Assembly: GCF_017302275.1 (NCBI RefSeq)
Contig: NZ_JAFLDR010000037.1
Span: 1-44,212, forward strand
Origin: Sulfuritalea sp.
GTDB taxonomy: Bacteria; Pseudomonadota; Gammaproteobacteria; Burkholderiales; Rhodocyclaceae
DNA length: 44,212 bases
Direction of reading: 5' to 3'
Part shown: positions 7,106 to 35,758 of the stretch, one piece after another
Numbering within the stretch: position 1 is the first letter of the stretch
Layout of the letters: the number at the start of each line of letters is the position of its first letter
The notes under the pieces: model-generated
Database searches by the model: none
Told to the model about the DNA's origin: nothing
Seen by the model: only the letters and a program-made list of their open reading frames with translations
Program-made: the position numbers and the translations under genes

Positions 7106-7130
7106 AAAAGTCGGCGCCGGCGACACGGCG
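7106..7130 (+). repeat. 25-bp dispersed repeat, copy 1 (intergenic)
   Basis: Begins AAAAGTCGGCGCCGGCGAC and ends CACGGCG. It differs by one base from the copy in the GH57 gene (34105-34129). It lies between the TrmO-like gene start and the end of the HDOD gene. The core is an imperfect dyad (GTCGgCGCCGgCGAC). Confidence 0.8.
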
Positions 7131-7167
7131 TGGAAAACATCCCGCGGCGCCGGGCGCGACCGGGCGA

Positions 7168-7995
7168 TCACCGCGTGGAGTAGTGGAAGCGCGCGCGACA
7201 GCGGCCGAAGCAGTCGTGCATTGCCGGGGAATTCCAGTCGATGCCCAGTTCCTCCACGGCCTTCACATTCAGGCGCGTCACCCGGTTCTTCGGCGACGAT
7301 GGAATGTCGAGGCCGCGCGCCAAGCTCTCGGCGACATTGATGACCGCCTGCAGCCTGCTGGTGACCACCGCGTCCTCATGGTGATCGCGGATGGAAAGTA
7401 TGAAGTCCTCCGGTAGCTGCCAGTGGGCGGCGAGCGCGGCACCGATCAGGGTGTGGTCCACGCCGAAGGCGGCGGTCTCCCTCTCGATCAGCCGCCCGTC
7501 GGCAACCGACCGGCGATAGACATCCTGGAACTGCCCGGCGTCCATGATGTGGAAGCACAGTTGGCCGACATCGTGCAGGATGCCGGCGACATAGGCCTTC
7601 TCCGTGGATTCGCCGCACAACTGCGCCAGTTCCTGGGCAACGATGGCGACCGCATGGGAATGGTCGAAGAGGAAGGTCGCGCCCCTGTCGTCGGCCAGGA
7701 ACTTGTTCATCGCCGCGGTGACGACGATGTGCTGGAATTGGGTGATGCCGATCAGCGAGGCCGCGACGAAGGGATCGTGCAAGTCAGGCAGGGCGTTGAT
7801 GCGTCGCAGCCGGTTGGCGGTGGCGAGGACGCCGGAGGTGATCACCGGGTCGTTCCGCGCCAGGCGCGTCATGGCTTCCATCGAGGCTTCCTCGTCGCGC
7901 AACATCGCCAGCAGTTGCAGCACCACCTTGGGAAAGGGCGGCAAATACCTGGCGATCGTCCCGATCGCGCCCGGCAGCGTGGCTACGCTCAGCAT
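7168..7995 (-). CDS. HDOD-domain signalling protein
   Basis: This 275-aa protein is almost entirely an HDOD domain, a degenerate HD-type fold found in bacterial signalling proteins. Features are the PPFPKVVLQLLAMLRDEEASMEAMTRLARNDPVITSGVLATAN opening at residues 19-61, the GITQFQHIVVTAAM segment, the HDVGQL motif (H141-D142), and the HWQLPEDFILSIRDHHE end. The HD pair is kept, although most HDOD proteins have no known enzyme activity. Its ATG overlaps the end of the upstream 118-aa gene by 7 nt (ATGCTGA), which suggests coupled translation. The longer open frame upstream of this start is the shadow of the partner gene. Confidence 0.88.
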   Translation of the reverse strand: MLSVATLPGAIGTIARYLPPFPKVVLQLLAMLRDEEASMEAMTRLARNDPVITSGVLATANRLRRINALPDLHDPFVAASLIGITQFQHIVVTAAMNKFLADDRGATFLFDHSHAVAIVAQELAQLCGESTEKAYVAGILHDVGQLCFHIMDAGQFQDVYRRSVADGRLIERETAAFGVDHTLIGAALAAHWQLPEDFILSIRDHHEDAVVTSRLQAVINVAESLARGLDIPSSPKNRVTRLNVKAVEELGIDWNSPAMHDCFGRCRARFHYSTR

Positions 7996-8345
7996 GCGGA
8001 CGGGCCGCAGGCACGAAGTGCATCGAGCAGGGGATGGCAGGCATCGTTGGGCTGGTCGCCGAAGATCTCGGCCAAGCGCTGCCCGTAGCGGGCGACGGCC
8101 GCCGCGCGCGCCGCCTCGTCGAGTGGGGCGTCCTGGCGCACGGCGACGCATTCGACGCCCTTGTTCACCAGTTGCGCGATGGTGCTGGTGGTGACGCTGC
8201 TGCCCACGGCGATGCGCAACGTGAGCTGGTTGCCGCGCCCGCCCTGGACCGGACGGGCGATCACCATGCCCGGCGCAAGATCCTCGGTCGGAATCCAGCA
8301 GTAGCAACCGGGCGCGGCGGCGGAGAGCGCGTCTTCCGTACTCAT
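7989..8345 (-). CDS. Small protein resembling the N-terminal domain of HD-GYP proteins
   Basis: This 118-aa protein contains LAPGMVIARPVQGGRGNQLTLRIAVGSSVTTSTIAQLVNKGVECVAVRQ (about residues 22-70). That is the 'GM-leading strand, then i-x-x-L-x-x-x-G-i-x-x-v-x-v' pattern seen at the front of many HD-GYP and HDOD signalling proteins. It overlaps the HDOD gene by 7 nt, so the two likely act as a split two-piece signalling unit. They may also have come from one gene separated by a frameshift. It is a family-level resemblance, not a firm domain assignment. Confidence 0.7.
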   Translation of the reverse strand: MSTEDALSAAAPGCYCWIPTEDLAPGMVIARPVQGGRGNQLTLRIAVGSSVTTSTIAQLVNKGVECVAVRQDAPLDEAARAAAVARYGQRLAEIFGDQPNDACHPLLDALRACGPSAC

Positions 8346-8711
8346 GGCGCAATGGTAACGCGTAAGGGCATGTCCATGTGACGCGCTGCGAACGACGTAG
8401 CCACGCGCCCTCTCGGTTCTGGAGCGATCGACAGGCCCATGCACGATCCCTTACGCATATACGGTCGCTCGCGACGGCGGAAAAACCGACCATTCCGATC
8501 GTTGCGCGCGGAAGCAATTCGCCGATTGCCATTGAGTCGGCTGCAACCTTCCAGAACAATCGCCCTGAGCTTGCCTCTTCCGATCGCCCCGGGCGCGAAC
8601 GGAGGTTCCAAAGTCACCGAGGTCGACTCCATGGTCGATTCGCTGCAGACGCCCGAATGCGGCACCAGCGCTTCTTGTCCCGACCATCGTCAAATTCGGA
8701 CAGGGCGTATC
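8346..8711. other. Gene-free stretch left of the insertion sequence
   Basis: This 366-base stretch is the left half of an intergenic region that was split by the IS element; the right half is 11097-11395. Open frames on both strands look non-coding, with poor family resemblance and no good ribosome binding sites. The promoter for the HDOD pair must lie at its left edge. Nothing else is recognised. Confidence 0.6.
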
Positions 8712-8719
8712 CGCCAGAC
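8712..8719 (+). repeat. Target-site duplication, left copy
   Basis: CGCCAGAC directly precedes the left terminal inverted repeat, and the identical octamer follows the right terminal repeat (11089-11096). An 8-bp duplication fits the 8-9 bp typical of IS1-family insertions and shows that the element inserted as one unit. Confidence 0.92.
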
Positions 8720-8738
8720 GGTAGTGTCTCAGTTTGAA
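8720..8738 (+). repeat. Left terminal inverted repeat of the IS
   Basis: GGTAGTGTCTCAGTTTGAA matches the right end in 18 of 19 positions when read inward. Confidence 0.93.
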
Positions 8739-8749
8739 AAACCCAACTC

Positions 8750-8786
8750 TTGACATCGGAGAGGCAGGCGCTACGCTGTGCGTACT
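8750..8786 (+). promoter_or_regulatory. Candidate promoter of the 79-aa passenger gene, near-leaderless start
   Basis: TTGACA (8750-8755), a 16-bp spacer and TACGCT (8772-8777) form a plausible sigma-70-type promoter. Transcription would begin at about 8783-8785, directly in front of the ATG at 8787. If so the message is nearly leaderless, and the in-frame GTG at 8778 would be upstream of the transcript start. A GGAGAGG string (8758-8764) inside the spacer would then not serve as a ribosome binding site. Confidence 0.5.
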
Positions 8787-9026
8787 ATGCCTAAACGCTC
8801 AAGCACTGGTCGCAAAGACCTGAATCAACTCGCCGCGTCGATTGTCGCCCAGGCTACCGACGAGGAACCCAAGCAACCAGAACAGCCTGAGAAGAACCCG
8901 GCTGCCGTTGCTCTTGGTCGCCTTGGTGGCCTCAAGGGTGGTGCTGCCCGAGCAAAAAAACTGACCGCTAAAGAGCGGTCAGAGATTGCGAAAAAGGCGG
9001 CAGCGGCGAGATGGGAGAAATCTTAA
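8787..9026 (+). CDS. IS passenger: small basic protein with C-terminal KGG/RW module
   Basis: This 79-aa protein is rich in lysine, alanine and arginine. Residues 1-40 are polar (KRSSTGRKDLNQLAASIVAQATDEE followed by a Pro/Gln-rich linker). Residues 41-79 hold AVALGRLGGLKGG, then ARAKKLTAKERSEIAKKAAAARW. Similar small proteins are widespread and are sometimes annotated as histone-H1-like; no function is known to me. The C-terminal module also begins the P63C protein encoded next to it. Its stop codon overlaps the stop of that convergent gene (shared TTAA at 9023-9026). The alternative GTG start at 8778 would add three residues. Role inferred as DNA- or protein-binding. Confidence 0.8.
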   Translation: MPKRSSTGRKDLNQLAASIVAQATDEEPKQPEQPEKNPAAVALGRLGGLKGGAARAKKLTAKERSEIAKKAAAARWEKS

Positions 9027-10060
9027 TCAGTTTCGTCGTCGTCAAAAAGGCGCTGAGTTTCACCGGGAATAGGAAACGCCTTCTTAACGTGTCCCTCGAA
9101 TTGTCGCCAAGTCGAGGAGATTCTCATCAGCGTCATTGTTGATGCAATTTGACGTTCAAGATGCGGGTTCCCTATGTAATCGGTCAGAAACTGGTGATGC
9201 TTATGTTTCCGTCGACCTTGCTCGTTCTTTGGATTCTTGTTCTTTAATTCGTCTAGCACGCCAATAGGCAGTCGCTTGTAGATTATGGCCTCAGTTAATT
9301 TCCCGATCAGAATTGGTCGTTTCACTGATAGCGGGTTATAGCTCCATCCTCTAAGACGAAACATCTCACGATAAAACTCATCAGGGAATCGCTTGGTCCA
9401 AGGTAAGAACTCAGGTGCGACATATGCCTCAAGCAACTTCCTAAGTTCGTCTTTTGATCGCTGCTGTTGATAGCCAGTGGCTTCGTCAATGAGCGCGACA
9501 AGACCTATCTTTGCAAATGCTTTGTAGATGAGTTGAGCTTGATCAGCAACGATATATTGACGCTCTGTACTCAACAGACCTCGGTCTCGCGCCAAGATCA
9601 TCAGCTCACAGAATTTTGTCAGCGCATCCGCAGTAAATCCGTTGATCTTTCTGCCCCGATAATTTTTCTGAATCGTGGTGAAGAGGTCCTTCATTTCCTC
9701 TTGAGAAATCAAAGAGCTAAAGAATTTTCTGCCCAAAAACCGCTTGAATCGGGTCCCAGGTCTTTGCACCCTGGTTCGGTCTTCTGGTTCGTCCTCAACG
9801 ACCTTTAGTATTTCCTGCATCTTTCTGCTTGCGATGAGCCGTTCGCCGGTGCTTGTTACAAAGCACGGAACTGTCACGTCGCCAAGTTTTAATTCACCTT
9901 CGTGGGTGATTTCTGATGTCTCTGCCGTTTCTGTGCTGCGTGGCTTTGACCATCTTTCCTTTGCCGCGTGAGAGGCAATATCACGGCGTTCGTCATCTGA
10001 GAGTTTTTTAGCCCGAGCAACCCCTCCCTTAGCTTTACCTTGTGGCGCTTCTGAGGTCAT
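9023..10060 (-). CDS. IS passenger: P63C-domain protein
   Basis: This 345-aa protein begins with a KGGVARAKKLSDDERRDIASHAAKERW module (about residues 10-36). It continues with ITHEGELKLGDVTVPCFV at about residues 50-70 and a C-terminal P63C domain that includes WTKRFPDEFYREMFRLRGW and an IYKRLPIGVLDELK segment. P63C domains occur in phage, plasmid and mobile-element proteins and have no established activity. The ATG at 10060 is preferred over the one at 10102 because it has a GGAG ribosome binding site at good spacing. The longer form would lack one and would start between the promoter and operator sites. It is more AT-rich than the host genes, which fits foreign origin. A repressor role is possible given the operator-like sites upstream (inference). 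Confidence 0.87.
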   Translation of the reverse strand: MTSEAPQGKAKGGVARAKKLSDDERRDIASHAAKERWSKPRSTETAETSEITHEGELKLGDVTVPCFVTSTGERLIASRKMQEILKVVEDEPEDRTRVQRPGTRFKRFLGRKFFSSLISQEEMKDLFTTIQKNYRGRKINGFTADALTKFCELMILARDRGLLSTERQYIVADQAQLIYKAFAKIGLVALIDEATGYQQQRSKDELRKLLEAYVAPEFLPWTKRFPDEFYREMFRLRGWSYNPLSVKRPILIGKLTEAIIYKRLPIGVLDELKNKNPKNEQGRRKHKHHQFLTDYIGNPHLERQIASTMTLMRISSTWRQFEGHVKKAFPIPGETQRLFDDDETD

Positions 10061-10190
10061 GCTTGCATCTCCATTTGTGGCGATGCTTGCAATATAACCC
10101 ATAGTCAGGTTTTAATGCAAGCATTACTTAAAACTAATGCTTGCATTTACTCTAAGTTCAGGCATAATTTCATTATGAACTTAATGCTTG
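10059..10190. promoter_or_regulatory. Divergent control region with iterated ATGCTTGCA sites
   Basis: The 9-mer ATGCTTGCA occurs at 10059-10067, 10083-10091 and 10137-10145. It occurs on the other strand at 10116-10124, and as ATGCTTG at 10184-10190. For the P63C gene (minus), TTGCAT and TATATT lie 18 bp apart (10120-10115 and 10096-10091). For the transposase (plus), TTGCAT (10141-10146) and CATAAT (10163-10168) lie 16 bp apart. Both -35 boxes are part of an ATGCTTGCA site, and another site overlaps the P63C -10 box. This is the layout of an autoregulated divergent operator. Confidence 0.7.
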
Positions 10191-10200
10191 AGGGGTAGCC

Positions 10201-11079
10201 ATGAACAAGTTGAGTCTTCAAAAGCGCGCGCAGATCATCGGCCTGCTGGTCGAAGGCAACAGCATGCGCGCCGTGACCCGATTGGTCGGATGCTCCATCA
10301 ACACCGTGACCAAGTTGCTCGAAGACGTAGGCGCAGCCTGCGCAGAGTTCCAAGACGGCGCAATCCGTAACATCAACAGCAAGCGCGTTCAGTGCGACGA
10401 AATCTGGTCGTTCTGCTACTCCAAGGAAAAGAACGTCGCGCCAGAAGATAAAGGCATCCTGGGCCACGGTGACGCCTACACTTGGACCGCCATTGATGCG
10501 GATACCAAGCTGGCTATTTCGTGGCTTGTGGGCCAGCGTGATGGCGACTACGCCGAAGCGTTCATCACCGATCTCGCCTCACGCTTGGCCGGTCGGATTC
10601 AATTGACCACTGACGGATGGGGGCCGTATGTTGGGGCGGTCGACAAGGTGTTTGGTGGCGCAATTGACTACGCCATACTGGTGAAAATTTACGAAGGCGA
10701 TGGCCAGAAAGATCAGCGCCGCTATAGTCCCGCTGGATTCGTGAAGTCTGAAAAGCGCCGGATCAACGGGAACCCCGACGTAAAGGAAGTTTCAACCAGC
10801 TACGTTGAGCGTCAGAACCTCACGATGCGCATGAGCATGCGCCGCTTCACGCGCCTTACAAACGGGTTCAGCAAGAAGATCGAGAACCTGGGCCATGCCG
10901 TAGCCCTGCATTTCATGTTCTACAACTTCGGGCGCATTCACAAGACGCTGCGCGTAACCCCAGCGATGGAAGCGGGCATCAGCGATCACGTTTGGACGCT
11001 TGAAGAAATCGCGGCCCTGGTCAAAGACGAGACGCCAGCCAAACGCGGCCCGTACAAAAAGAAAGAAAATTCAAACTGA
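10201..11079 (+). CDS. IS1-family DDE transposase
   Basis: This 292-aa transposase has an N-terminal helix-turn-helix (about residues 17-42, EGNSMRAVTRLVGCSINTVTKLL) and a DDE catalytic domain. The likely triad is D66 (CDEIWSF), D138 (TTDGWGPY) and E203 (SYVERQN). The C-terminal RFTRLTNGFSKKIENLGHAVALHFMFYNFGRIHKTLRVTPAMEAG block is typical of this group. A GAGGGG ribosome binding site precedes the ATG. The last codons run into the right terminal repeat, and the TGA stop at 11077-11079 is within it. The frame is full length with no visible damage, so the enzyme is probably active. Confidence 0.95.
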   Translation: MNKLSLQKRAQIIGLLVEGNSMRAVTRLVGCSINTVTKLLEDVGAACAEFQDGAIRNINSKRVQCDEIWSFCYSKEKNVAPEDKGILGHGDAYTWTAIDADTKLAISWLVGQRDGDYAEAFITDLASRLAGRIQLTTDGWGPYVGAVDKVFGGAIDYAILVKIYEGDGQKDQRRYSPAGFVKSEKRRINGNPDVKEVSTSYVERQNLTMRMSMRRFTRLTNGFSKKIENLGHAVALHFMFYNFGRIHKTLRVTPAMEAGISDHVWTLEEIAALVKDETPAKRGPYKKKENSN

Positions 11080-11088
11080 GACACCACC
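11070..11088 (-). repeat. Right terminal inverted repeat of the IS
   Basis: Read inward it is GGTGGTGTCTCAGTTTGAA, one mismatch from the left end. It contains the stop codon of the transposase gene. Confidence 0.93.
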
Positions 11089-11096
11089 CGCCAGAC
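11089..11096 (+). repeat. Target-site duplication, right copy
   Basis: CGCCAGAC, identical to 8712-8719 on the other side of the insertion sequence. Confidence 0.92.
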
Positions 11097-11395
11097 CGTT
11101 GGCGTGACAACTGCACCCGGTTCGGCGACAATGCAATTTGGTGCAAGGACGGAAGGGATTTGCGGGGTCATGACTCCGCCCTATGTGTAGGTTTGCAACT
11201 GTCTCATGTTCGGTCGTCGGCGCAATGCGGACACCTCTCCTCGGTAGCACGAACACCCACTGGCCTGGTAGCGGCAATCATCGCTCCAAGCGCTTATTCC
11301 CCGCGCTCACTTCGCATGCAACCGGGTGTGCGATGGATGTCTGCCTGCCCTGACGGGCTGGCGTCCGCTGCGGCCCAATCACTTCGGATCACATC
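11097..11395. other. Gene-free stretch right of the insertion sequence
   Basis: About 300 bases lie between the IS and the CorC/HlyC-type gene, the right half of the interrupted intergenic region. It must hold the promoter of the downstream gene, but I see no strong -35/-10 pair, no convincing gene and no known riboswitch motif. Confidence 0.5.
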
Positions 11396-12727: not shown

Positions 12728-12860
12728 GAACCGGCAATGTCGGCCGCGTTCGAGTGGCGGACACCGCAGGCGACCGTTTCCTTGGGTCGATTGCGGCAGC
12801 GTTGGCCGAAAGCCTTGATGCCACTCGCTCGATCCTCTCAAGTCCGGCAGGCACGATTGC

Positions 12861-13850: not shown

Positions 13851-13973
13851 GGTTCCCTCCGGATCCGACATGGACCAAGTATCCGGTGGTCCGCGTGCGC
13901 CGTCAATGCGCGGCGCGGCGGCCGCAGTTCGGCGGTGCTACACTCGCCGCCCCGCAACCACCGGCGACGCATC

Positions 13974-14741: not shown

Positions 14742-14750
14742 GCCACCGCG

Positions 14751-16740: not shown

Positions 16741-16748
16741 CTGTCCTC

Positions 16749-18239
16749 CTAGAGTCCCAACTGCTGCCAGAGCGCGTCCACGCGCAGCTTCACGGCGGGG
16801 TCCATGACGATCGGACGGCCCCATTCCCGTGTCGTCTCGCCCGGCCACTTGTTGGTCGCGTCGATGCCCATTTTGCTCCCCAGGCCCGCCACCGGTGAAG
16901 CGAAATCGAGGTAATCAATGGGCGTATTCTCGGCAATCAGGGTATCACGCGCCGCATCGACCCGCGTCGTCAGCGCCCAGATCACCTCGGGCCAGGAACG
17001 CACGTCGACATCGTCGTCGGTGACGACGATGAACTTGGTGTACATGAACTGACGCAGGAAGCTCCAGATGCCGAACATGACCCGCTTGGCGTGGCCGGGA
17101 TAGGCCTTGCGGATCGAGACCAGCGCCATGCGGTAAGAGCAGCCCTCGGGCGGCAGGTAGAAATCGACGATCTCGGGGAAGGTCTTGCGCAGCAGCGGCA
17201 CAAAGACCTCGTTCAGCGCAAGGCCAAGCATTGCCGGTTCGTCGGGCGGCTTGCCGGTATAGGTGGAATGGTAGATCGCGTCGCGCCGCAGGGTGATGCG
17301 CTGCACCGTGAACACCGGAAACTCGGAGACCTCGTTGTAATACCCGGTGTGGTCGCCGTAGGGACCTTCGGCTGCGGTCTCGCCTGGATGGATAACGCCT
17401 TCGAGCACGATCTCGGCGGAGGCCGGCACCTGCAGGTCGGACCCGATGCATTTCACCACCTCGGTCTTGGCGCCGCGCAGCAGGCCGGCGAACTGGTATT
17501 CTGACAGCGTGTCCGGCACCGGAGTCACGGCGCCGAGTATGGTCGCCGGATCGGCGCCGATCACCACCGCGACCGGGAAAGGCTGGCCGGGCTTGGTCGC
17601 GCAATGCTCGCGAAAGTCCAGCGCGCCGCCGCGATGGGCCAGCCAGCGCATGACCAGCTTGTTCGGCGCGAGCAGCTGCTGGCGGTAGATGCCGAGGTTC
17701 TGCCGCGCCTTGTGCGGCCCGCGCGTCACCACAAGGCCCCAGGTGACCAGCGGCGCGGCGTCGCCCGGCCAGCAGGTCTGGATCGGCAGGCGGCCGAGGT
17801 CGACCTCGCGGCCCTCCCAAACGACTTCCTGGCAGGGCGCGGACGAGACGACCTTGGGCGCCATGTTGAGCACCTGCTTGAGGACCGGCAACTTGTCCCA
17901 GGCGTCCTTGATGCCCTTGGGCGGTTCCGGTTCCTTGAGGTAGGCCAGCAGTTCGCCGACTTCGCGCAAGCGGGTCTTCCAGTCCACTGCCGCGCCCTCC
18001 GCTGCCGCGCCTGCGGCAATCCCCATGGCGACGCGCTCGGGCGTGCCGAACAGGTTGGCCAGCACCGGCATGGCGTGGCCCCTGGGATTCTCGAACAACA
18101 GGGCGGGACCGCCGGCGCGCAGCACGCGATCGGCGATCTCGGTCATCTCCAGCTTGGGATCGACCTCCACCGTGATGCGCTTGAGCTGGCCGATGGCTTC
18201 AAGCTGGCGGACGAAGTCGCGCAGGTCGGCGTATTTCAT
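16749..18239 (-). CDS. ubiD: 4-hydroxy-3-polyprenylbenzoate decarboxylase UbiD
   Basis: This 496-aa enzyme matches canonical UbiD, which removes the carboxyl group from the UbiA product in ubiquinone synthesis using prenyl-FMN supplied by UbiX. N181 and R186 (NLGIYR) and the [13 protein letters not shown] motif (E291, D296) are in place. Other landmarks are [13 protein letters not shown] and [52 protein letters not shown]. The length is typical (E. coli 497). The ATG overlaps the stop of the upstream MBL gene (ATGA), and ubiA is two genes upstream, so decarboxylation directly follows prenylation in gene order. Confidence 0.97.
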
Positions 18240-19336
18240 TTTTCGATTCTAACCGTCCGCGTCTCGCCATGTTTCAGGAGCCAGATCCGGTCGGGCGAAA
18301 GTCGGCGCTGGCGCGACGCCAGTTCGAGGTCTTTGGGCGGCTGGTCGAAGGGCTCCTGGGTCAGGGCGAAGGTGCCCCAGTGCACACCGAGCCCTTGCTT
18401 CGCGTCGAGGTCGAGCAGAATCTGCAGCGCATCGTCGGGATTGACGTGCTGCGGCCCCATGAAGTCGCGCGGCAGGTAGGCACCCACCGGTACCGCGAGG
18501 AGATCCACCGGGCCGAGGCGACGGCGGATTTCGCGGAAGTCGGCCGAGTAGCCGGTGTCACCGGTGTATAGGAAGCGCCAGGCTTCGGCGTCGCCGCGCT
18601 TCCATTCGACCATGAAGCCGCCCCACAGCGAGGCATTTGTGTCGAATGCGGTGCGCCGGCTCCAGTGCTGGGCCGGCGTAAAGCGCAACGTGAGGCCAGC
18701 GATTTCCATCCGGTCCCACCAATCCATCTCGGCCGCCACCGGACCGATGCCCTGCTCCTCGAACCAGGACTTGAGACCCAGCGGCACCACGTAGGCTGGC
18801 CTCTGTCCGGCGGCATGCAGGCGGCGCAGCGTCGGCTCGTCGAGGTGGTCGTAGTGGTTGTGCGAAATCAGCACCAGGTCGATCGGCGGCAGTTGCGCCT
18901 CGGACAGCGGCGGCGGCACATGGCGCGGCGCGCCGAGGTCGAGCAGGCCGCCGATGACGGGGCCGGCCTTGTTCGAGAACTGCGGATCGATCAGGATGTT
19001 CTGCCCGCCCACCTGGAGCAGCAGCGAGGCATGGCCCAGCCAGGTGATGCGCGGCTCCTGGGTGCGTCGCGCCAGCAGGGCATGCTCGACCGGCGCCGTC
19101 CACATCGCGGCAAAGGCCACGTAGCCACCCTCGGGCGGCGCCACCGGACGAAAATCCCCGCGCAGGTTGCGAAACAGGATCTCGTACCAGGGAATGCCGC
19201 CTACCGGTGCTGCGGGATCGGAGTTGACGAAGCCGTTGGGCCGGTGATGGGCCTTGGCCGCGTTGTAGTGGATATTCACCGGCGTGCAGGCGGCAACGCC
19301 GAGGGCCAGCGCGAGCAGCGCGAGCGCCCGCCTCAC
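18236..19336 (-). CDS. Metallo-beta-lactamase-fold hydrolase, predicted lipoprotein
   Basis: This 366-aa protein starts at GTG and overlaps the ubiA stop by four bases (GTGA). It has a lipoprotein signal: [16 protein letters not shown], with Cys 17 as acyl site. The mature part is an MBL-fold hydrolase of the UlaG/RomA/NAPE-PLD-like group. Signs are [26 protein letters not shown], the metal motif [12 protein letters not shown] (HxHxDH), and [13 protein letters not shown]. Relatives include N-acyl-phosphatidylethanolamine phospholipase D. Sandwiched between ubiA and ubiD with 4-bp overlaps on both sides, it is tightly co-translated, although no link to quinone synthesis is known to me. The upstream open frame before the GTG is ubiA shadow. 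Confidence 0.88.
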
Positions 19337-20220
19337 AGGCCGAGCCAGGGCCGCAGGTTGAGCTCGGCGACGATGCCGGCGAAGACCGCCGCGCCGAACC
19401 ACTTGTTGTGGCGGAAGGCGGCGAAGCAGCCGTCACGCTTGCGATCGCGGATCAGCAGGAAATGGTAGCCGGCGATCATCGCGGCGACGCCGAGTCCCGC
19501 GTAGTACGGCCAGGCGTAGGCCAGGCGCAGGCCGACTTCGACCAGTATCAGCAGCGTGATGCCATAGCAGATCATCACCGCGGCGACGTCGAAATTGCCG
19601 AAGGTGATGGCGGCGGTGCGGATGCCGATCTTGAGATCGTCCTCGCGGTCGACCATGGCGTATTCCGTGTCGTAAGCCAGTGCCCAGAACACGTTGGCGG
19701 CCAGCAGCGTCCAACCCACCGGACCGACTTCGCCATCCACCGCGGCGAAGGCCATCGGGATGCCGAAGCCAAAGGCGACCCCGAGGTAGGCCTGTGGCAA
19801 CGCGAAAAAGCGCTTGGTGAAGGGATAACTGGCGGCGAGGAACAGCGCGATCAGCGCCAGCCACCAGACGTCGCGGAAGATCGGCAGGATCAGCAGGAAG
19901 GAACAGAACACCAATACGCCGGCCAAGGTCAGCGCCTCGCGCGTGGAGACCCTGCGCGCCGCCAGCGGACGGTCCCGGGTGCGCTCGACATGCGGGTCGA
20001 AATCGCGGTCGGCATAGTCATTGATGACGCAACCGGCAGAACGCATCAGCAGCGTGCCCAGCGCGAAAATCCAGACCAGCGGCCAGCTCGGCTGGCCGCG
20101 ACTGGCGATCCACAGCGCGCACAGGGTGGGCCACAGCAGCAACAGGGTGCCGATCGGCTTGTCCAGCCGCATCAGCTTTTCGTAGAGGTCGAGGCGCTCT
20201 TTGATCCGGGCGAGATCCAT
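19333..20220 (-). CDS. ubiA: 4-hydroxybenzoate polyprenyltransferase UbiA
   Basis: This 295-aa inner-membrane protein with about eight to nine hydrophobic segments transfers the polyprenyl tail onto 4-hydroxybenzoate in ubiquinone synthesis. The Mg-diphosphate motifs are NDYADRDFD (about residue 66) and [13 protein letters not shown] (about residue 180). Length matches E. coli UbiA (290). The start at 20220 gives [25 protein letters not shown], the usual opening; the open frame further upstream is recG antisense-type noise. It is ten bases from the recG stop, so recG and ubiA may be co-transcribed. Confidence 0.97.
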
Positions 20221-20230: not shown

Positions 20231-22270
20231 TTACGCCTTGAGCAGTTCCTCGCGTCCGCCCAGCCAGCGCTGCAGGTGCGCCGTCGCCAGCTCCGGCGCG
20301 TCGCGCAGCATGTCCTCGGCGATGACGCGGGCCCGCTCGACCAGCGCGGCGTCCTCCAGATCCGCGTAGCGCAGCAGCGGCATGCCGCTTTGGCGCGCAC
20401 CGATGAATTCGCCGGGACCGCGCAGGCGCAAATCCTCGCGCGCGATCTCGAAACCGTCGTTGGTTTCGAAGATGGCCTTCAGCCGCGCCCGCGCCAGTTC
20501 GCCCAACGGCTGGGCGTAGAGCAGGATGCAGGCCGATTGCGCGGCGCCGCGCCCGACGCGGCCGCGCAACTGGTGGAGCTGGGCGAGGCCGAAGCGTTCC
20601 GCATGTTCGATCACCATCAGGCTGGCGTTGGGCACATCGACACCGACCTCGATCACGGTGGTCGCCACCAGCACGTGGACCTCGTTGCCGACGAAGGCCG
20701 CCATCACCGCCGCCTTGTCGGCGGCCTTGAGCCGGCCGTGCACCAGGCCGATCTTGAGGTCCGGCAGTTCGGCGACCAGGCGCGCATAGGTCTCTTCCGC
20801 GGTCTTGAGTTGCAAGGTTTCACTCTCTTCTATGAGCGGGCACACCCAATAGGCCTGACGCCCCGTCCGACAGGCATCGTGCACACGCTTCAGGACTTCA
20901 TCGCGCCGCCCCTCTGCGACCAGCCTGGTGGTGACCGGGCTGCGTCCCGGCGGCAACTCGTCGAGCACCGAGACGTCGAGATCGGCGTAGTAGCTCATGG
21001 CCAGGGTGCGCGGAATCGGCGTCGCCGACATCGCCAGTTGATGGGCGAAGCTACCCTTGTCCTTCAGCGCGAGGCGCTGGCGCACGCCGAAGCGGTGCTG
21101 CTCGTCGACGATGGCCAACCCGAGACGCGCGAACTCGACCTTGTCCTCGATCAAGGCATGGGTGCCGATCGCGATCGCCGTGTCGCCAGCGCCGACTCTT
21201 GCGATCGCCGCTTCCTTGTCGCGCTTCTTCAGGCTGCCGGTGAGCCAGGCGACTTCCAGCCCCAAGGGCTGCAGCCAGGTCGCGAGCTTGCGGTAATGCT
21301 GCTCGGCAAGGATTTCGGTGGGCGCCATCAGCGCCGCCTGGTGTCCGGCTTCGACCGCATGCAGTATGGCCAGCGCGGCGACCACCGTCTTGCCGCTGCC
21401 GACGTCGCCCTGCAGCAGGCGCTGCATGGGATGCGGCTGACCAAGGTCGGCGGCGATCTCGCGCCAGGCGCGCTGCTGTGCGCCGGTAAGCTTGAAGGGC
21501 AAGGATTTCAGCAGCGCGTCGGTGAACTGCGCCGTCGGCCCCAGCTTCGGTGCACCGCGCGCGCGGCGAGCAAGGTAGGCACGGCGCAGGCTGAGCTGCT
21601 GGGCCAGCAGTTCGTCGAACTGCACGCGGCGCCAGGCCGGGAAGTCGCGCGCTTCGAGCACCGATTGCGCCATCTCGGGCGGAGGGTTGTGGAGGAAGCG
21701 GATCGATTCCGCGATGCCGGGAAGATCCAGGCGGCGCAGCAGGTCCGGTGCCAGCGTGTCGCTGAGATCGACCCGCGCCAGCGCCTTTTCGATCAGGCGG
21801 CGCAGAGTGGCCTGGCCCAGCCCGGCCGTGGTCGGATAGACCGGCGTCAGCCCGTCGGGCAGGGATTCGCCGGCCGCCACCGGATGAAAGCGCGGGTGGA
21901 TGATCTCGGGGCCGAGGTAGCCCTCGTGCACTTCGCCGAAGATGCGCACGCGCGTGCCGGGCTGCAGCACCTTCTGCTGGCTGGGATAGAAATTCAGGAA
22001 GCGTAGTGACAGTGCACCGCCGGCATCGCGCACCCGCGCGATCAACTGGCGGCGAGGACGGTAGGCGACGTCACAGTCGGTGACCTCGACCTCGAACTGG
22101 GCGGCGACGCCGGGACGCGCGTCGGCCAGCGCGGTAATGCGTGTCTCGTCCTCGTAGCGCAGCGGCAAGTGCAGCGCGAAATCGGCGTCGGTCTTGAGGC
22201 CGAGCCGCGCCAGGCGGCCGGCGAGCGTGTTGGAGGCGGCGGCAGCGGGTTTAACGTGAAGAACACCCAT
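20231..22270 (-). CDS. recG: ATP-dependent DNA helicase RecG
   Basis: This 679-aa branch-migration helicase acts at stalled forks and Holliday junctions. Its features are an N-terminal wedge/OB domain (about 1-230), the Walker A motif [11 protein letters not shown] (about residues 283-293), the DEQH box within [14 protein letters not shown], and the [10 protein letters not shown] motif. A GRVGRG helicase motif and a C-terminal RecG wedge follow. Near residues 357-365 it contains ARVGAGDTA, about three residues longer than the AIASG-type segment usual in RecG. That stretch is encoded by the 25-bp dispersed repeat (21176-21200). The ATG at 22270 lacks a visible ribosome binding site; the longer frame upstream runs through the intergenic repeat and is not credible. 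Confidence 0.96.
21176..21200 (-). repeat. 25-bp dispersed repeat, copy within recG
   Basis: Read on the minus strand it begins AAGAGTCGGCGCTGGCGAC and ends CACGGCG, one base different from the GH57 copy. It is read in the same frame as in the GH57 gene and gives ARVGAGDTA. Confidence 0.85.
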
Positions 22271-22288
22271 TGGGCATCGTGTCAGGCA

Positions 22289-22402
22289 TCGAGCGCAGCG
22301 AGCAAACCAGGAACCCCCCGCGAGGGGGCGAGGCGGGAATTCGCGACGCATGCGTCGCGCCGCCGCAGCCGGCTGGCTGTGCAAAGCCAGCCGTGGGCCG
22401 CA
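22289..22402 (-). repeat. Dispersed 3'-flank element, copy A (downstream of ridA)
   Basis: In the sense of ridA it contains three stems: GGCTGGCT/AGCCAGCC (22371-22392), the 16-bp palindrome GCGACGCATGCGTCGC (22343-22358), and a CCCCC/GGGGG stem near 22313-22328. It ends in GCTCGCTGCGCTCGA. It fills most of the ridA-recG gap, just upstream of recG. The second stem has a different sequence but conserved pairing in copy C, which points to selection on structure. Confidence 0.75.
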
Positions 22403-22432
22403 TAGCGGAAAGGGGGGCGGGCGTCTGAAAAG

Positions 22433-24631: not shown

Positions 24632-25387
24632 ATGTTCCTGCTCAAGAAAATCCTTGTTTCCCTGATCCTGCCGCCGACCGGACCGGTCCTGCTGGCGCTG
24701 TTCGGGCTTTGGCTGTCGCGCGCCAAAAGTCGGCGCTGGCAATACGGCGGCGTTGCCCTGGCGTCGGTCGCGCTGCTGGCGTTGCTGGTGCTTTCCACGC
24801 CGATCGTCGGCCATGCGCTGATGGCCCCGCTGCAGCGGCATCCGGCGCTCGCGCCCGGGCAACTGAAGGACGTCCAGGCCATCGTCATCCTCGGCGGCGG
24901 TTCCTACTACGGGGCCCCCGAGTATGGCGGCGACACGATAGGCGGCCCGACCCTGGAGCGCATTCGCTACGGCGCGTGGCTGTCGCGCAAGACGCGCCTG
25001 CCGCTGCTGGTCACCGGCGGCGCCCCCTATGGCGGCCGCGCCGAGGCCGATTCGATGCGCGAGGCGCTGGAACCGGAATTCGGCGTCGCGGTGCGCTGGG
25101 TCGAATCCGCCTCGCGCGACACCGCGGAAAGCGCCCGCCTGTCGGCGCCGCTGCTCGCCTCCGCCGGAATCACCCGCATCGCGCTGGTCAGCCACGGCTG
25201 GCACCTGCCGCGCGCGGTCCCGCTGTTCGAACAGCAAGGCCTGCAAGTCCTTGCCGCGCCAACCGCCTTCAGCATGCCCTCACCCTCCCTGCTGGAAAAT
25301 CTTTTGCCCAGCAATCTGGCCGGCAGCCGCTGGGCGCTCAACGAATACCTCGGCCAACTCTATTACCGCCTGAAGGAATCGTTATGA
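24632..25387 (+). CDS. YdcF/ElyC-family (DUF218) membrane protein
   Basis: This 251-aa protein has two N-terminal hydrophobic segments (about residues 3-29 and 40-60) and a DUF218 domain. The domain shows VQAIVILGGGSYYGAPEYGG (about 81-100), LLVTGGAP, and SRDTAESARLSAPLLASAGITRIALVSHGWHLPRAVPLFEQQGL. ElyC and SanA relatives act in envelope integrity and lipid-linked polysaccharide metabolism. An in-frame ATG ten codons upstream (24602) is possible; neither start has a good ribosome binding site. Codons 32-39 fall on a copy of the 25-bp repeat. It is divergent from metY. Confidence 0.88.
   Translation: MFLLKKILVSLILPPTGPVLLALFGLWLSRAKSRRWQYGGVALASVALLALLVLSTPIVGHALMAPLQRHPALAPGQLKDVQAIVILGGGSYYGAPEYGGDTIGGPTLERIRYGAWLSRKTRLPLLVTGGAPYGGRAEADSMREALEPEFGVAVRWVESASRDTAESARLSAPLLASAGITRIALVSHGWHLPRAVPLFEQQGLQVLAAPTAFSMPSPSLLENLLPSNLAGSRWALNEYLGQLYYRLKESL
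24725..24749 (+). repeat. 25-bp dispersed repeat, copy within the YdcF/ElyC gene
   Basis: Begins AAAAGTCGGCGCTGGCAAT and ends TACGGCG, with two differences from the GH57 copy. Here it is read in another frame, giving KSRRWQYG next to a membrane segment. Confidence 0.7.
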
Positions 25388-26111: not shown

Positions 26112-26226
26112 TTCGAGCGAAGCGAGCCGATCAGTCGCCTCCTCATGGGGAGGCGAGGCGGAAATTCGCAACGCGTGCGTCGCGCCGCCGCAGCCGGCGG
26201 GTTGTGCAAAGCCAGCCGTGGGCCGC
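26112..26226 (-). repeat. Dispersed 3'-flank element, copy B (downstream of the 496-aa gene)
   Basis: It has the same order of parts as copy A. The first stem (26196-26217) has two mismatches. The second stem (26168-26183) is kept with one G-T wobble and one mismatch, and a GCCTCC/GGAGGC stem lies near 26137-26154. In the sense of the 496-aa gene it lies on its 3' side, as in the other copies, between that gene and the converging mogA. Confidence 0.7.
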
Positions 26227-26323
26227 GCAGCGGATGGGAGAGGCGGGCCTTCAATTCGCTTTTCCGGCCAAGCACCAACATGCTTGATCGAAGCTTTCCC
26301 TTTTCGATTACGGCTTGCGCGGC

Positions 26324-29855: not shown

Positions 29856-29929
29856 CGATTGTCAACGTGCTGTCATGGCAGCGGCGCACTATATCGATCA
29901 AGCACATCGAAGATCAGGAGGAACGCCAA

Positions 29930-30283
29930 ATGACAGGTTCGAAGACCAGCACGAAAAGCAGCGCTACCGGCGCGGCGAAGAAAGTTCCCGCCGCGACCCA
30001 AGCCAAGGCTCCGGCCAAGAGGGCGCAGCCCGCGAAGGCAGTAGCGGCGGTGAAGAAGCCGGCCGTCAAGCTGAGCGATGCGAAAGCGGTGCCGAAGCCC
30101 GCCGCCCCGCGCGCGAAGAAGTCGAAGTCCGTGCCAGCCGAGCAGCGGCGGAACTACGTCGAAATGGCGGCGTATTACATCGCCGAACGGCGTGGGTTCG
30201 CTCCGGGCAATCCGCTGGAGGATTGGGTGCAAGCCGAGGCCGAGATCGACCGCCTGCTCGCCGAGGGGCGTCTGGGCGGCTGA
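29930..30283 (+). CDS. DUF2934-domain protein with basic Lys/Ala/Pro tail
   Basis: This 117-aa protein starts after an AGGAGGA ribosome binding site. Residues 1-67 are a low-complexity AKP-rich chain like histone H1 or phasin tails. Residues 72-117 are a DUF2934 domain (YVEMAAYYIAERRGFAPGNPLEDWVQAEAEIDRLLAEG). DUF2934 proteins occur near glycogen/trehalose genes in many proteobacteria. No reaction is known. The basic tail suggests binding to DNA or an anionic polymer (inference). It converges on glgB, three bases apart. Confidence 0.85.
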   Translation: MTGSKTSTKSSATGAAKKVPAATQAKAPAKRAQPAKAVAAVKKPAVKLSDAKAVPKPAAPRAKKSKSVPAEQRRNYVEMAAYYIAERRGFAPGNPLEDWVQAEAEIDRLLAEGRLGG

Positions 30284-30286
30284 ATT

Positions 30287-32440: not shown

Positions 32441-32503
32441 GGGTATATAGTCTCAGGAGTTTTTTGCTATCGTGCGGATTGTAGCCGCAAGGGAGGATTC
32501 ACC
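32441..32503. promoter_or_regulatory. Divergent promoter region glgB / glgC-leader
   Basis: This 63-base gap is AT-rich by local standards, with TATATAGT near 32445-32453 and TTTTTTGCTATCGT near 32459-32472. TGCTATCGT resembles an extended -10 box for the leader and glgC. TATATA on the opposite strand may serve glgB. No -35 match is convincing. A GGGAGGA ribosome binding site (32491-32497) ends the region. Confidence 0.45.
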
Positions 32504-32575
32504 ATGTATTGGAATGCAGAACCTGCCGGTTCCGACGCGACTCGGCCCGGCGCGGGCAGAGGAGTGCGTTCGTGA
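32504..32575 (+). CDS. 23-aa leader peptide coupled to glgC
   Basis: A short frame opens with ATG seven bases after a strong GGGAGGA ribosome binding site. The peptide begins [15 protein letters not shown] and ends GVRS. Its TGA overlaps the glgC GTG start in the pattern GTGA (32572-32575). This is the strongest ribosome binding site in the region, stronger than the GAGGAG before glgC, and suggests that ribosomes reach glgC partly by reinitiation. The peptide has no recognised domain and no repeated-codon attenuator pattern. A cistron this small may be regulatory rather than functional as a protein. Confidence 0.6.
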
Positions 32576-33831
32576 CAGCCACCGAGATCGCGCACAACAC
32601 CTTCGGCATCGTGCTGGCCGGCGGCCGCGGCAGCCGCCTGATGCAACTCACGGACTGGCGCTCCAAGCCTGCCGTTCCATTCGGCGGCAAGTTCCGCATC
32701 ATCGACTTCACGCTGTCGAACTGCGTCAATTCCGGCATCCGCCGCATCGGCGTCGCCACCCAGTACAAGGCACAGAGCCTGATCCAGCACCTGCAGCGCG
32801 GCTGGAGCTTCCTCGACGGTCGCTTCCACGAATTCATCGACATCCTGCCGGCGCAGCAGCAGATCAGCGAAGACTGGTATCGGGGAACGGCCGATGCGGT
32901 ATTCCAGAATCTCGACCTGATCCGGCGCAACCGGCCAAGGTACGTGCTGGTGCTTTCGGGCGATCACATCTACAAGATGAACTACGCCCGCATGCTGGCC
33001 GAACATGCCGACCGCCAGGCTGATTTCAGCGTTGCCTGCATCGATGTCCCGCGGCTCGAGGCGACCGAATTCGGTGTCATGCACGTCGACGAACAGCAGC
33101 GCGTGGCGGCCTTCGTCGAAAAGCCCAAGGATCCTCCGGCGATCCCTGGACGCCCGGACCGCGCCCTGGCCAGCATGGGCGTGTATGTCTTCAATGCCGA
33201 CTTCCTCTTCGAACAATTGATCCGCGACCACGACGAGCCGAAGTCGTCGCACGACTTCGGCAAGGACCTGATTCCGCATTGCGTAGACCGCTACCGGGTT
33301 TTCGCCCACAACTTCGTCGATTCCTGCGTCGGCATGGACGAAACCAGGATTCCCTACTGGCGCGATGCCGGCACCATCGACGCCTACTGGGAAGCCAACA
33401 TGGAGCTGACCAAGGTCACGCCGGAACTCAACCTCTACGACGACGACTGGCCGATCTGGACCCACCAGGAACAGCTGCCGCCGGCCAAGTTCGTTTTCGA
33501 CGACGACGGGCGGCGCGGCATGGCGGTGGATTCGCTGGTTTCCGGCGGCGACATCATCAGTGGCGCGCTGGTGCGCCATTCGCTGCTGTTCTCCCGGGTC
33601 CACGTGCACAGCCACGCGGAGATCGAGGACTCGGTGATCCTGCCGGACGTCCATATCGGTCGCCACGCCAAACTGCGCCGCGTGGTGATGGACAAGCATT
33701 GCCGGGTTCCCGAGGGCTTGCAGATCGGCTACGACCGCGAGGCCGATCGCAAGCGCTTCCACGTCAGCGACAACGGCGTCACGCTGGTGACGCCGGAAAT
33801 GCTGGGCCAGCAGGCGCACCACATAAGGTGA
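32572..33831 (+). CDS. glgC: Glucose-1-phosphate adenylyltransferase GlgC
   Basis: This 419-aa enzyme makes ADP-glucose from glucose-1-phosphate and ATP, the committed and allosterically controlled step of bacterial glycogen synthesis. The nucleotide-binding loop is [14 protein letters not shown] (residues 14-27). [11 protein letters not shown], the FVEKPKDPP glucose-1-P site and [15 protein letters not shown] follow, and a left-handed beta-helix completes the C-terminus. GTG at 32572 is preferred as start because it overlaps the leader stop and lies after a GAGGAG motif. The frame upstream of it belongs to the leader region. A perfect stem-loop begins at its stop codon. Confidence 0.96.
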
Positions 33832-33851
33832 CTTTCAAAATGAAAGTCACC
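33827..33851 (+). terminator. Perfect 11-bp stem-loop at the glgC stop codon
   Basis: GGTGACTTTCA and TGAAAGTCACC flank an AAA loop; the glgC stop TGA (33829-33831) is inside the left arm. No T-tract follows, so it may act as an mRNA-end stabiliser or attenuator between glgC and the GH57 genes rather than as a full terminator. It parallels the stem-loop at the ridA stop codon, which is also followed by the dispersed element. Confidence 0.6.
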
Positions 33852-33880
33852 ATGGTCATCATGGCCCCCCACCCCTCGCT

Positions 33881-33995
33881 CCACGGCCGGCTTTGCACAG
33901 CCGGCCGGCTGCGGCGGCGCAAGGCAGTGCCTTGCGAAACCCCGCCTGCGCCCCCTTCCCGGGGCGGGGGCCAAGTATTGCTCGCTGCGCTCGAA
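33881..33995 (+). repeat. Dispersed 3'-flank element, copy C (downstream of glgC)
   Basis: Three stems are present: GGCCGGCT/AGCCGGCC (33885-33906), GCAAGGCA/TGCCTTGC (33919-33935), and a CCCCC/GGGGG stem (33951-33970). They are followed by GCTCGCTGCGCTCGA. Compared with copy A, the first stem changes a T-A pair to C-G. The second stem changes at several positions yet stays fully paired. Confidence 0.75.
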
Positions 33996-34036
33996 GTGGC
34001 GTATCGCGGCCCCTGCCATCTGACCCGGCTCCAGTC

Positions 34037-35758
34037 ATGAAACAGCTCGATCTCGTCTTTCTCTGGCACATGCACCAGCCGGACTATCGCGATCACGGCG
34101 CGGCAAAAGTCGGCGCTGGCGACACGGCGTCGGGAGAGTTCGTCCTGCCCTGGGTCTATCTGCACGCCATGAAGGACTATGTCGACATGGCAGCGCACCT
34201 GGAACGCCATCCGCGGATCCATTGCGTCGTCAATTTCGTCCCGGTTCTGCTCGACCAGATCGAGGACTACGCGCAGCAGTTCGCCAGCAGGCAGTTTCGC
34301 GACCCCCTGCTGCGCATGCTGGCGACACCCGACCTCGAATGCCTCGGCGTGGCCGACCGGAAGCTTCTGTTGGCGACCTGCTTCCGCAGCAACCACACCA
34401 CCATGCTGGCGCCCTTCCCGCAATACAAGCGCCTGCACGAGATCTACCTGCTGCTCGCCAACGACAGCGAAGCAACCTACTGCTACCTGTCCGGCGCCTA
34501 CTTCTCCGACCTCGTGACCTGGTACCACCTGGCGTGGACCGGCGAGACCGAACGTCGCCGCAACCCCCTGCTGGCCAAGCTGATGAGCCAGGGCGAAGGC
34601 TATGACGCCGGGGATCGCCGCGCGTTGCTGGACAGCATCGGCGAACTGATCACCGGCCTGGTTCCGCGCTGGCGGGCACTCGCCGAACGCGGCCAGGTCG
34701 AGATCTCGTCCACGCCGAACACGCATCCGCTGTCGCCCTTGCTGCTCGACTTCAAGGCCGCACGCGAGAGCCTGCCCGATGCGCCGCTGCCCTTCAGCGC
34801 GGCCTATCCCGGCGGGCGCAGCCGGGTCATCGCCCACATCGATGCCGCGCGCATCAGCCATGCCCGCCGCTTCGGCGCACCGCCGGTCGGCATGTGGCCG
34901 GCCGAGGGTGCCGTTTCCGAGGACTTCGTCAAGCACCTCGCCGCCGCCGACTGCCGCTGGATCGCCAGCGGCGAAGGGGTGCTGAACAACAGCCTTGCCA
35001 CCAGCAAGGTCAGCGACCCGCGCGCCACCTATCATCCCTGGAAGCTGGAACAGGCTCCCGGCCTGACCCTGTTTTTCCGCGACGAGCGCCTTTCCGACCT
35101 GATCGGTTTCGACTATGCCAAATGGCACGGCCGCGACGCCGCCAAGCACCTTTTGCTGCAGCTGGAAGCCATCCTCGATGCCGCGACAGGAGAAGAAAAC
35201 CCGGTGGTCAGCATCATCCTCGACGGCGAAAATGCCTGGGAGCACTATCCCTACAACGGCTTTTACTTCTTCGAGGACCTCTACGGCCTGCTCGCCGAGC
35301 ATCCCCGTATCCGCACCACGACCTACGCCGAACTGCTGGCACGACCCAGCCCGCCAGCCGCCACGATACTGCCGCGCCTGACCGCGGGCAGCTGGGTGTA
35401 TGGCACGCTATCGACCTGGATCGGCGACGAGGCCAAGAACCGGGGCTGGGACCTGCTGTGCGAAGCCAAGCAGAGCTGCGACCGGGTGCTGGCCAGCGGC
35501 CGCCTCGACAGCGCGCAAGCCACCGCGGTCATCGCGCAGCTGGCCATCTGCGAAAGCTCCGACTGGTTCTGGTGGTTCGGCGACTACAACCCGTCGACCG
35601 CTGTCGCCAGTTTCGACAGCCTGTACCGGCGCAACCTGGCAAGGCTCTACCAGTTGCTGCAGCTGGAGCCGCCTGCGCAGCTCGACACCCCCATTTGCGC
35701 CGGATCGGCGACCGCCACCGGCGGCTCGATGCGCCGCGTCACCGTTTCCCAAAACTGA
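34037..35758 (+). CDS. Glycoside hydrolase family 57 protein (first of two)
   Basis: This 573-aa GH57 enzyme is an alpha-amylase/amylopullulanase-type relative. It opens with LVFLWHMHQPDYRD; the HMHQPDY block is GH57 motif 1. The nucleophile is E290 in GMWPAEGAVSED, and the acid/base is D396 in LDGENAWEHYPYNG. Residues 23-31 (AKVGAGDTA) come from the 25-bp dispersed repeat and look like part of an in-frame insertion of about 11 residues. In relatives, as I remember them, DYRD is followed almost directly by SGEF-like residues. It acts on glycogen or maltodextrins together with GlgP. It lies eight bases before the second GH57 gene. Confidence 0.92.
   Translation: MKQLDLVFLWHMHQPDYRDHGAAKVGAGDTASGEFVLPWVYLHAMKDYVDMAAHLERHPRIHCVVNFVPVLLDQIEDYAQQFASRQFRDPLLRMLATPDLECLGVADRKLLLATCFRSNHTTMLAPFPQYKRLHEIYLLLANDSEATYCYLSGAYFSDLVTWYHLAWTGETERRRNPLLAKLMSQGEGYDAGDRRALLDSIGELITGLVPRWRALAERGQVEISSTPNTHPLSPLLLDFKAARESLPDAPLPFSAAYPGGRSRVIAHIDAARISHARRFGAPPVGMWPAEGAVSEDFVKHLAAADCRWIASGEGVLNNSLATSKVSDPRATYHPWKLEQAPGLTLFFRDERLSDLIGFDYAKWHGRDAAKHLLLQLEAILDAATGEENPVVSIILDGENAWEHYPYNGFYFFEDLYGLLAEHPRIRTTTYAELLARPSPPAATILPRLTAGSWVYGTLSTWIGDEAKNRGWDLLCEAKQSCDRVLASGRLDSAQATAVIAQLAICESSDWFWWFGDYNPSTAVASFDSLYRRNLARLYQLLQLEPPAQLDTPICAGSATATGGSMRRVTVSQN
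34105..34129 (+). repeat. 25-bp dispersed repeat, copy within the GH57 gene
   Basis: Begins AAAAGTCGGCGCTGGCGAC and ends CACGGCG. It is read as AKVGAGDTA, in the same codon phase as the recG copy (24 of 25 bases identical). Confidence 0.85.

What the first reader, a model, noticed from the sequence alone, without database searches (positions are those of the whole stretch)
7106..34129. A 25-bp sequence dispersed at five places, including inside genes
Copies that begin AAAAGTCGGCGCTGGCGAC and end CACGGCG lie at 7106-7130 (intergenic), 21176-21200 (recG, minus), 24725-24749 (YdcF/ElyC gene) and 34105-34129 (GH57). A 16-base piece is at 18298-18313 in the MBL gene. Such identity across unrelated genes cannot be chance. 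A repeat tolerated in coding sequence is unusual and could be a mini-mobile element, uptake signal or protein-binding site.
Basis: partly seen in the sequence, partly recalled or inferred. Interest (0 to 1): 0.75.

Follow-up and report, generated by a model that had tools for sequence, protein, structure and literature searches.

The report
Candidate DNA uptake tag, new family
A 25-letter DNA tag occurs hundreds of times in this betaproteobacterium and in its relatives, and it looks like the "self" labels that two other bacterial families use to choose which free DNA to take up; uptake itself has not been tested here.

Summary
The 25-mer AAAAGTCGGCGCTGGCGACACGGCG (up to 3 mismatches) occurs 478 times in the 4.41-Mb genome, 233 forward and 245 reverse; the reversed-pattern control gives 0. 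All 31 genus genomes searched have it, 11 to 478 copies. In a draw of 199 family genomes, five further genera reach 100 or more, some with variant spellings; the others have 26 or fewer.

Edges are sharp and flanks unconserved. In recG 18 of 21 genomes carry it; the other three differ by substitutions, without a gap. Within it an alanine codon is GCT in 16 of 18, against 2% of GCN codons elsewhere in recG: the constraint is on DNA. A conjugative island holds 1 copy, 11 expected (post hoc).

This is the anatomy of DNA uptake sequences, which a 2025 paper says are known only in Neisseriaceae and Pasteurellaceae. Best reading: a self-DNA uptake sequence of a Rhodocyclaceae-type lineage (0.70). 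Against it: uptake untested, receptor unknown, ComEA not recognised in motif-rich genus members, and at GH57 the motif sits in extra sequence.

The parts
7106..7130 (+). motif copy, intergenic, between the minus-strand TrmO_N ORF (6585-7100) and the minus-strand HDOD ORF (7168-8559)
   Evidence: AAAAGTCGGCGCCGGCGACACGGCG, 1 mismatch; neighbours by Pfam
18297..18321 (+). degenerate motif copy near the 3' end of a minus-strand metallo-beta-lactamase-fold gene (18236-19402)
   Evidence: 2 mismatches at the 21 constrained positions; copy at the same site in 4 of 4 aligned genomes, own included; Lactamase_B_2
21176..21200 (-). motif copy in recG, same strand as the gene, read as RVGAGDTA
   Evidence: AAGAGTCGGCGCTGGCGACACGGCG, 1 mismatch; copy in 18 of 21 genomes; RecG domains
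24725..24749 (+). motif copy in the ydcF/elyC-type gene (frame of 24647-25387), read as KSRRWQYG ahead of the DUF218 domain
   Evidence: AAAAGTCGGCGCTGGCAATACGGCG; copy in 15 of 19 aligned genomes; DUF218. My gene caller misassigned this one.
   Evidence: GAAAGTCGGCGTTGGTGTAACGGCG, 2 mismatches at constrained positions; copy in 12 of 15 aligned genomes; Glucokinase domain
34105..34129 (+). exact motif copy in the GH57 gene (34037-35758), read as KVGAGDTA, in a loop of variable length
   Evidence: 0 mismatches; Glyco_hydro_57; loop compared across the genus

Best explanation
The motif RARAGTCGGCGCTGGCGNNACGGCG(a) is a self-DNA uptake sequence. A surface receptor, most likely a minor pilin of the type IV pilus, prefers free DNA that carries it; that DNA is pulled in, crosses the inner membrane through ComEC, and recombines with the chromosome. 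Marked alleles are imported more often, so copies that arise by point mutation spread and are kept where the protein or spacer tolerates them. Spelling variants arise as receptor and motif drift together. Shown here: abundance on both strands, a sharp profile, evolution mostly by substitution, DNA-level constraint, clade-limited spread with variants, presence of ComEC and pilins. Inferred: the uptake bias, the receptor, the drive.
For: 478 copies, both strands equal, control 0; 31 of 31 genus genomes; six genera with 100 or more copies in 199 family genomes, 0-4 in the 291 genomes drawn outside the family; sharp edges, free positions 18-19; variant spellings in g43 and g69; substitutions without gaps between carriers and non-carriers at recG and no long gap in 802 comparisons; GCT held in 16 of 18 recG copies against 2%; uneven use of the six frames, chi-square p 4e-7; conjugative island 1 copy against 11 expected; ComEC over cut-off in 29 of 31, pilin signatures in 10 of 10.
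Against: No uptake or competence data. The receptor was not found: pilins of motif-poor G017 match those of the own genome. ComEA: of 9 genus genomes searched with HHH_3, only motif-poor G017 has matches in ORFs under 400 aa; the motif-rich ones have only ORFs of about 800 aa or longer, or none; across the family, small ORFs with HHH_3 were seen more often in motif-poor genera. ComEC is also in G017, which has 11 copies. The GH57 copy lies in extra sequence. No paired copies forming terminators, no even spacing. The island test was chosen after seeing the counts, and the composition trend is not significant in G002. Some viral contigs carry the motif, often more than once.
Confidence: 0.7

Rival explanations
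1. A genome-wide binding site of a cytoplasmic protein (chromosome organisation, segregation, replication or repair), kept by selection on chromosome function.
For: High information over 25 bp, two blocks with a free 2-bp gap, DNA-level constraint, spread over 19 of 20 windows of the G002 chromosome.
Against: Near-loss in G017 within the genus; present in many and absent from most genera of one family; depletion in an integrated island; no strand polarity by GC skew, 20 against 32. None of these is decisive.
Confidence: 0.15
2. A relic: an uptake sequence of an ancestor, now decaying without function in these genomes.
For: Low counts in G017 (11), G021 (72) and G025 (103), with substituted sites; no other dominant 12-mer stood out in 286 kb of G017; ComEA not recognised in motif-rich genus members.
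Against: In the own genome 12 copies are exact and a rare codon is held in 16 of 18 recG copies, so upkeep looks recent in most of the genus.
Confidence: 0.06
3. A mini-mobile element of about 25 bp that inserts into genes and spacers.
For: At GH57 the motif lies in sequence that genomes without it lack.
Against: No gap over 7 bases on the copy-less side in 802 comparisons around recG and none over 12 in a wider, weaker set of 2773 in which gaps up to 47 were bridged on the other side; recG sites differ by substitutions only; variant spellings per clade.
Confidence: 0.04
4. A peptide repeat kept for its protein sequence (KVGAGDTA).
For: 27 of 75 in-gene copies use that frame.
Against: 48 of 75 use the five other frames and 33 of 114 copies are intergenic; a rare codon is conserved inside it.
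Confidence: 0.01

Closest known systems
DNA uptake sequence (DUS) of Neisseriaceae, receptor ComP
   Same: Genome-wide, both strands, in genes and spacers, clade dialects (PMC3630211 passages); atypical distribution in conjugative islands (PMC7371117 abstract).
   Different: Different sequence and longer (25 bp in two blocks, not about 10-12); no paired copies forming terminators, which PMC3630211 reports in all DUS genomes; receptor unknown; uptake untested.
Uptake signal sequence (USS) of Pasteurellaceae
   Same: Genome-wide, both strands, biased frames in genes (frame bias of USS recalled); an extended profile beyond a core (extended 17-position USS in PMC12616744 passages).
   Different: Unrelated sequence; different lineage; here the second block is 6 bp after a free 2-bp gap.
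REP/MITE-type small repeats
   Same: Many dispersed copies.
   Different: Those move by insertion and carry palindromes (recalled); here sites change by substitution and the motif is asymmetric.
Chi/KOPS-type polar chromosome signals
   Same: High copy, tolerated in genes.
   Different: Those are about 8 bp and strand-polarised (recalled); no such polarity here.

Membership tests
DNA uptake sequences (DUS/USS as a kind) | One short motif in hundreds of copies, both orientations, far above chance | tested here: met
   478 copies, 233/245, control 0
DNA uptake sequences (DUS/USS as a kind) | Copies in genes and spacers, in tolerated frames | tested here: met
   75 of 114 sampled copies wholly in genes, 33 intergenic, 6 partial; frames uneven; crude gene caller
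DNA uptake sequences (DUS/USS as a kind) | Clade-limited, with dialects | tested here: met
DNA uptake sequences (DUS/USS as a kind) | Copies arise by substitution, not as inserted units | tested here: met
   recG, ydcF and glucokinase sites; GH57 loop is contrary
DNA uptake sequences (DUS/USS as a kind) | Depleted in mobile DNA | tested here: inconclusive
   Island 1 against 11 expected, chosen after seeing counts; own-genome trend rho -0.62, G002 trend not significant; 78 viral stretches carry it
DNA uptake sequences (DUS/USS as a kind) | Competence machinery present | tested here: inconclusive
   ComEC 29 of 31 over cut-off; pilins 10 of 10; ComEA not recognised in motif-rich genus members; DprA, PilQ and PilT not searched
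DNA uptake sequences (DUS/USS as a kind) | DNA with the motif is taken up preferentially | not testable with these tools
   needs a living strain
DNA uptake sequences (DUS/USS as a kind) | Specific surface receptor | tested here: inconclusive
   pilins compared in G000, G002 and G017, no candidate stood out
Neisseriaceae DUS proper | Inverted pairs forming terminators (PMC3630211) | tested here: not met
   closest copies 401 bp (own sample) and 254 bp (G002 sample) apart
Mini-mobile element (MITE/REP) | Inserted unit absent from empty sites | tested here: not met
   exception GH57
Polar chromosome signal (Chi/KOPS) | Strand bias along the replichores | tested here: not met
   20 against 32 copies by local GC skew; windows with |skew| at or under 0.01 left out of 20 windows of G002

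The most novel reading that the evidence does not exclude
A third bacterial lineage, Rhodocyclaceae-type betaproteobacteria, has its own self-DNA uptake system with a 25-bp two-block signal, clade dialects and losses, read by an unidentified receptor (probably a minor pilin, possibly touching the DNA twice) and perhaps imported without a recognisable ComEA.
Probability: 0.62. Interest if true: 0.87.

Novelty: new variant of a known kind. Interest (0 to 1): 0.78.

Why it matters
A 2025 paper names two families only with self-specific uptake motifs (PMC12616744 introduction, passages). A third case, in a family known here largely from metagenome-assembled genomes (record titles), with spelling variants and near-loss in one congener, would make it testable how a receptor and hundreds of genomic sites change together, and would predict natural transformation in genera for which my searches found no report of uptake sequences. 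It would also mark imported DNA in these genomes.

Tried and rejected
Mini-mobile element: disfavoured for lack of insertion gaps, kept at low odds because of GH57. Peptide repeat: rejected, copies use all six frames and spacers. Polar chromosome signal: no polarity. Paired terminators: none in the samples. Even spacing: not seen, variance/mean 1.21 and 1.16. Replacement motif in motif-poor G017: no dominant dispersed 12-mer in 286 kb; frequent words of genera g3 and g7 were listed there but not followed up. Receptor: the pilins of G000 that match G002 also match G017, PilW by tblastn only; my pattern is incomplete and missed the short major pilins at first. ComEA: not recognised in motif-rich genus members. 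Phage avoidance: not shown. The first protein comparison of GH57 used a wrong frame; only its DNA was used. Densities from G098, G132 and G091 are not used, since those stretches were picked near known copies. Odds lowered from 0.73 to 0.70 on re-reading: the only small HHH_3 ORFs in the genus are in motif-poor G017.
Full report
Observation. The 19-base head gives 6 matches in the window where shuffles give 0.02. In the whole genome the 25-mer at up to 3 mismatches has 478 copies, 233 forward and 245 reverse; the reversed-pattern control has none.

Anatomy. From 46 copies in a 442-kb sample of the own genome (window included) and 57 in 400 kb of G002, at up to 4 mismatches, the motif is RARAGTCGGCGCTGGCGNNACGGCG followed weakly by A. 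Positions 18 and 19 are nearly free, and information drops to background outside. The motif is asymmetric. The closest neighbours in the samples are 401 bp (own) and 254 bp (G002) apart.

Spread. All 31 genus genomes searched have it: 11 in G017, 72 in G021, 103 in G025, up to 478. Of 199 genomes of 68 genera drawn from the family, 66 have a match. Six genera have a genome with 100 or more: g1, g32 (544), g62 (580), g70 (158-443), g88 (250-332), g43 (35-413). G098 of g69 has 26 and G076 of g47 has 19; all others have 11 or fewer. Of 300 genomes drawn from the order, the 291 outside the family have 0-4; the control pattern hit once there, in G506. In some poor genomes the few copies share a contig (G108, 4 of 4; G183, 3 of 3), as imports would. 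Among 80 named recG loci, 4 carry the motif at up to 3 constrained mismatches: L072, L073, L075 and, once and with 2 mismatches, L071. Their record titles say Rhodocyclaceae, Rhodocyclales or beta proteobacterium.

Dialects. Sampled copies show g62 (17 copies) with the own spelling, g43 (26 and 20 copies) ending ACGGCAc with position 5 loose in G072, and g69 (12 copies) with GTCGACGCTGG and position 16 free. They were collected with the own motif as seed at up to 4 mismatches, which biases towards it. The GAC spelling used as a pattern gave no further rich genus.

How copies arise. Of 21 loci around recG, 18 carry the recG copy (up to 2 mismatches at 21 constrained positions). G017, G021 and G025 differ by 6, 9 and 9 substitutions and no gap. 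The ydcF site is a copy in 15 of 19 aligned genomes (G017 aligns there with a 7-base gap), the 28995 site in 12 of 15, and the 18297 site in 4 of 4. In 802 comparisons of 56 copies, many of them redundant, the longest gap on the copy-less side is 7. RecG of other betaproteobacteria shows no gap over two residues in the 50 residues around the site (loci whose alignment spanned it). A wider set (115 copies, 2773 comparisons, many weak; 963 with some gap in the site) has no gap over 12 on the copy-less side, although gaps up to 47 were bridged on the other side. Contrary: the GH57 copy lies in a loop of variable length; G017 and G021, for example, lack motif and extra sequence together.

DNA-level constraint. 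In the 18 recG carriers the alanine codon of KVGAGDTA is GCT in 16; GCT is 2% of GCN codons elsewhere in recG. At 227 other fourfold sites with an invariant codon prefix the commonest base has mean frequency 0.79; the five such sites in the motif have 0.83, 1.0, 0.89, 0.94 and 1.0. Of 114 sampled copies, 75 lie wholly in called genes, 33 between genes, 6 across ends; the 75 use the frames unevenly: 27 sense KVGAGDTA, 21 antisense AVxPAPTF, 13 antisense RRxASADF, 14 the other three (p 4e-7). The gene caller is my own and misplaced the 24725 copy. Intergenic copies exceed the non-coding share in G002 (22 of 66, p 1e-5) and not clearly in the own sample (11 of 48, p 0.07).

Foreign DNA. Contig C1 from about 80 kb on has 57-58% GC and encodes a TraI_2 protein, a TraC and a coupling protein with TraG/TraD domains. 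The 80 kb sampled there hold 1 copy where 11 are expected (p 0.0005), a test chosen after seeing the counts. Copies fall with compositional distance in the own genome (rho -0.62, p 0.002, 22 windows), not significantly in G002 (rho -0.36, p 0.12, 20 windows). Low GC may itself make the motif rarer. Of IMG/VR, 78 stretches have the motif; they hold 125 copies in 749 kb, a figure inflated by selection, so phage avoidance is not shown.

Machinery. ComEC is over cut-off in 29 of 31 genus genomes. Pilin signatures are in 10 of 10 genomes searched, GspH/FimT-type in 31 of 32. PilE-, FimT- and PilW-like genes lie together in G000, G002 and G017 (names by resemblance). ComEA: TIGR00426 gave 19 of 31 weak matches and none over cut-off. 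HHH_3 matched 28 of 32 genomes; in the genus the matches lie in ORFs of about 800 aa or longer (Tex by recall), except three in motif-poor G017 in ORFs of 181-314 aa; complete, motif-rich G002 gave none. Motif-rich G117 and G199 of g88 have HHH_3 ORFs of 195 and 210 aa, and several motif-poor genera have such ORFs too. This counts against the reading or shows a divergent ComEA; I cannot tell which.

Literature. PMC12616744 (passages) says that Neisseriaceae and Pasteurellaceae are the only families known with such motifs. Seen besides: passages of PMC3630211 and PMC4212676, abstract and outline of PMC7371117. Searches for uptake-sequence terms with Accumulibacter, Rhodocyclaceae, Rhodocyclales and betaproteobacteria, for Sulfuritalea with natural transformation, and for the string GTCGGCGCTGGCG returned no paper; with Xanthomonadaceae one, on Xylella, seen in the listing only. 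Two broader listings (20 of 30 and 20 of 23 papers) were seen as titles and abstract starts. The library is open access only. By recall, unchecked, the size of G002 suggests Sulfuritalea hydrogenivorans.

Verdict. A candidate uptake sequence in a third family: same kind as DUS and USS, unrelated spelling, longer and in two blocks, unpaired. Shown: abundance, spread, variants, origin mostly by substitution, DNA-level upkeep. Inferred: uptake, receptor, drive.

Noticed in passing
own genome contig C1, about 80-220 kb (L033-L036): Conjugative island of 57-58% GC with TraI_2, TraC and TraG/TraD-type genes, also a SAVED-domain protein and an N6-methyltransferase; nearly free of the motif.
   Followed up: partly
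GH57 gene of G015 (L306) and G023 (L297): The motif is split after GTCGGCGCTG by some 65 bases of similar sequence in both genomes; the inserted string was found only there among the fetched genus loci scanned.
   Followed up: partly
L377 (G002) against L369 (G000), and L051 (G002): Another motif copy is split at the same point by about 30 bases that resemble a string at a second place in G002; the motif may be an insertion target of a small repeat.
   Followed up: no
recG of G006, G007, G015, G022: The match to RecG breaks near residue 494 with about 50 extra bases in an open frame, suggesting an in-frame insertion; a later look joined each into one longer alignment without showing detail.
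   Followed up: partly
window 22324-22409, 26149-26234, 33881-33926 (minus): Dispersed repeat of 46-86 bp, about 90% alike, with palindromic GGCTGGC/GCCAGCC; REP-like. Its last copy matches the false N-terminus of the GH57 ORF, which recurs in many genus genomes.
   Followed up: no
window 6501-6544 and 22288-22331: 44-bp repeat beginning ATCGAGCGCAGC, 84% alike; similar strings stand near GH57 in other genus genomes.
   Followed up: no
own genome C10:60001-79000 (L050): Tandem array with 84 CGCCCGGCCC words in one 19-kb stretch.
   Followed up: no
G108 contig C50, G183 contig C148: In motif-poor genera the few copies sit together on one contig, as if imported from a motif-rich donor.
   Followed up: no
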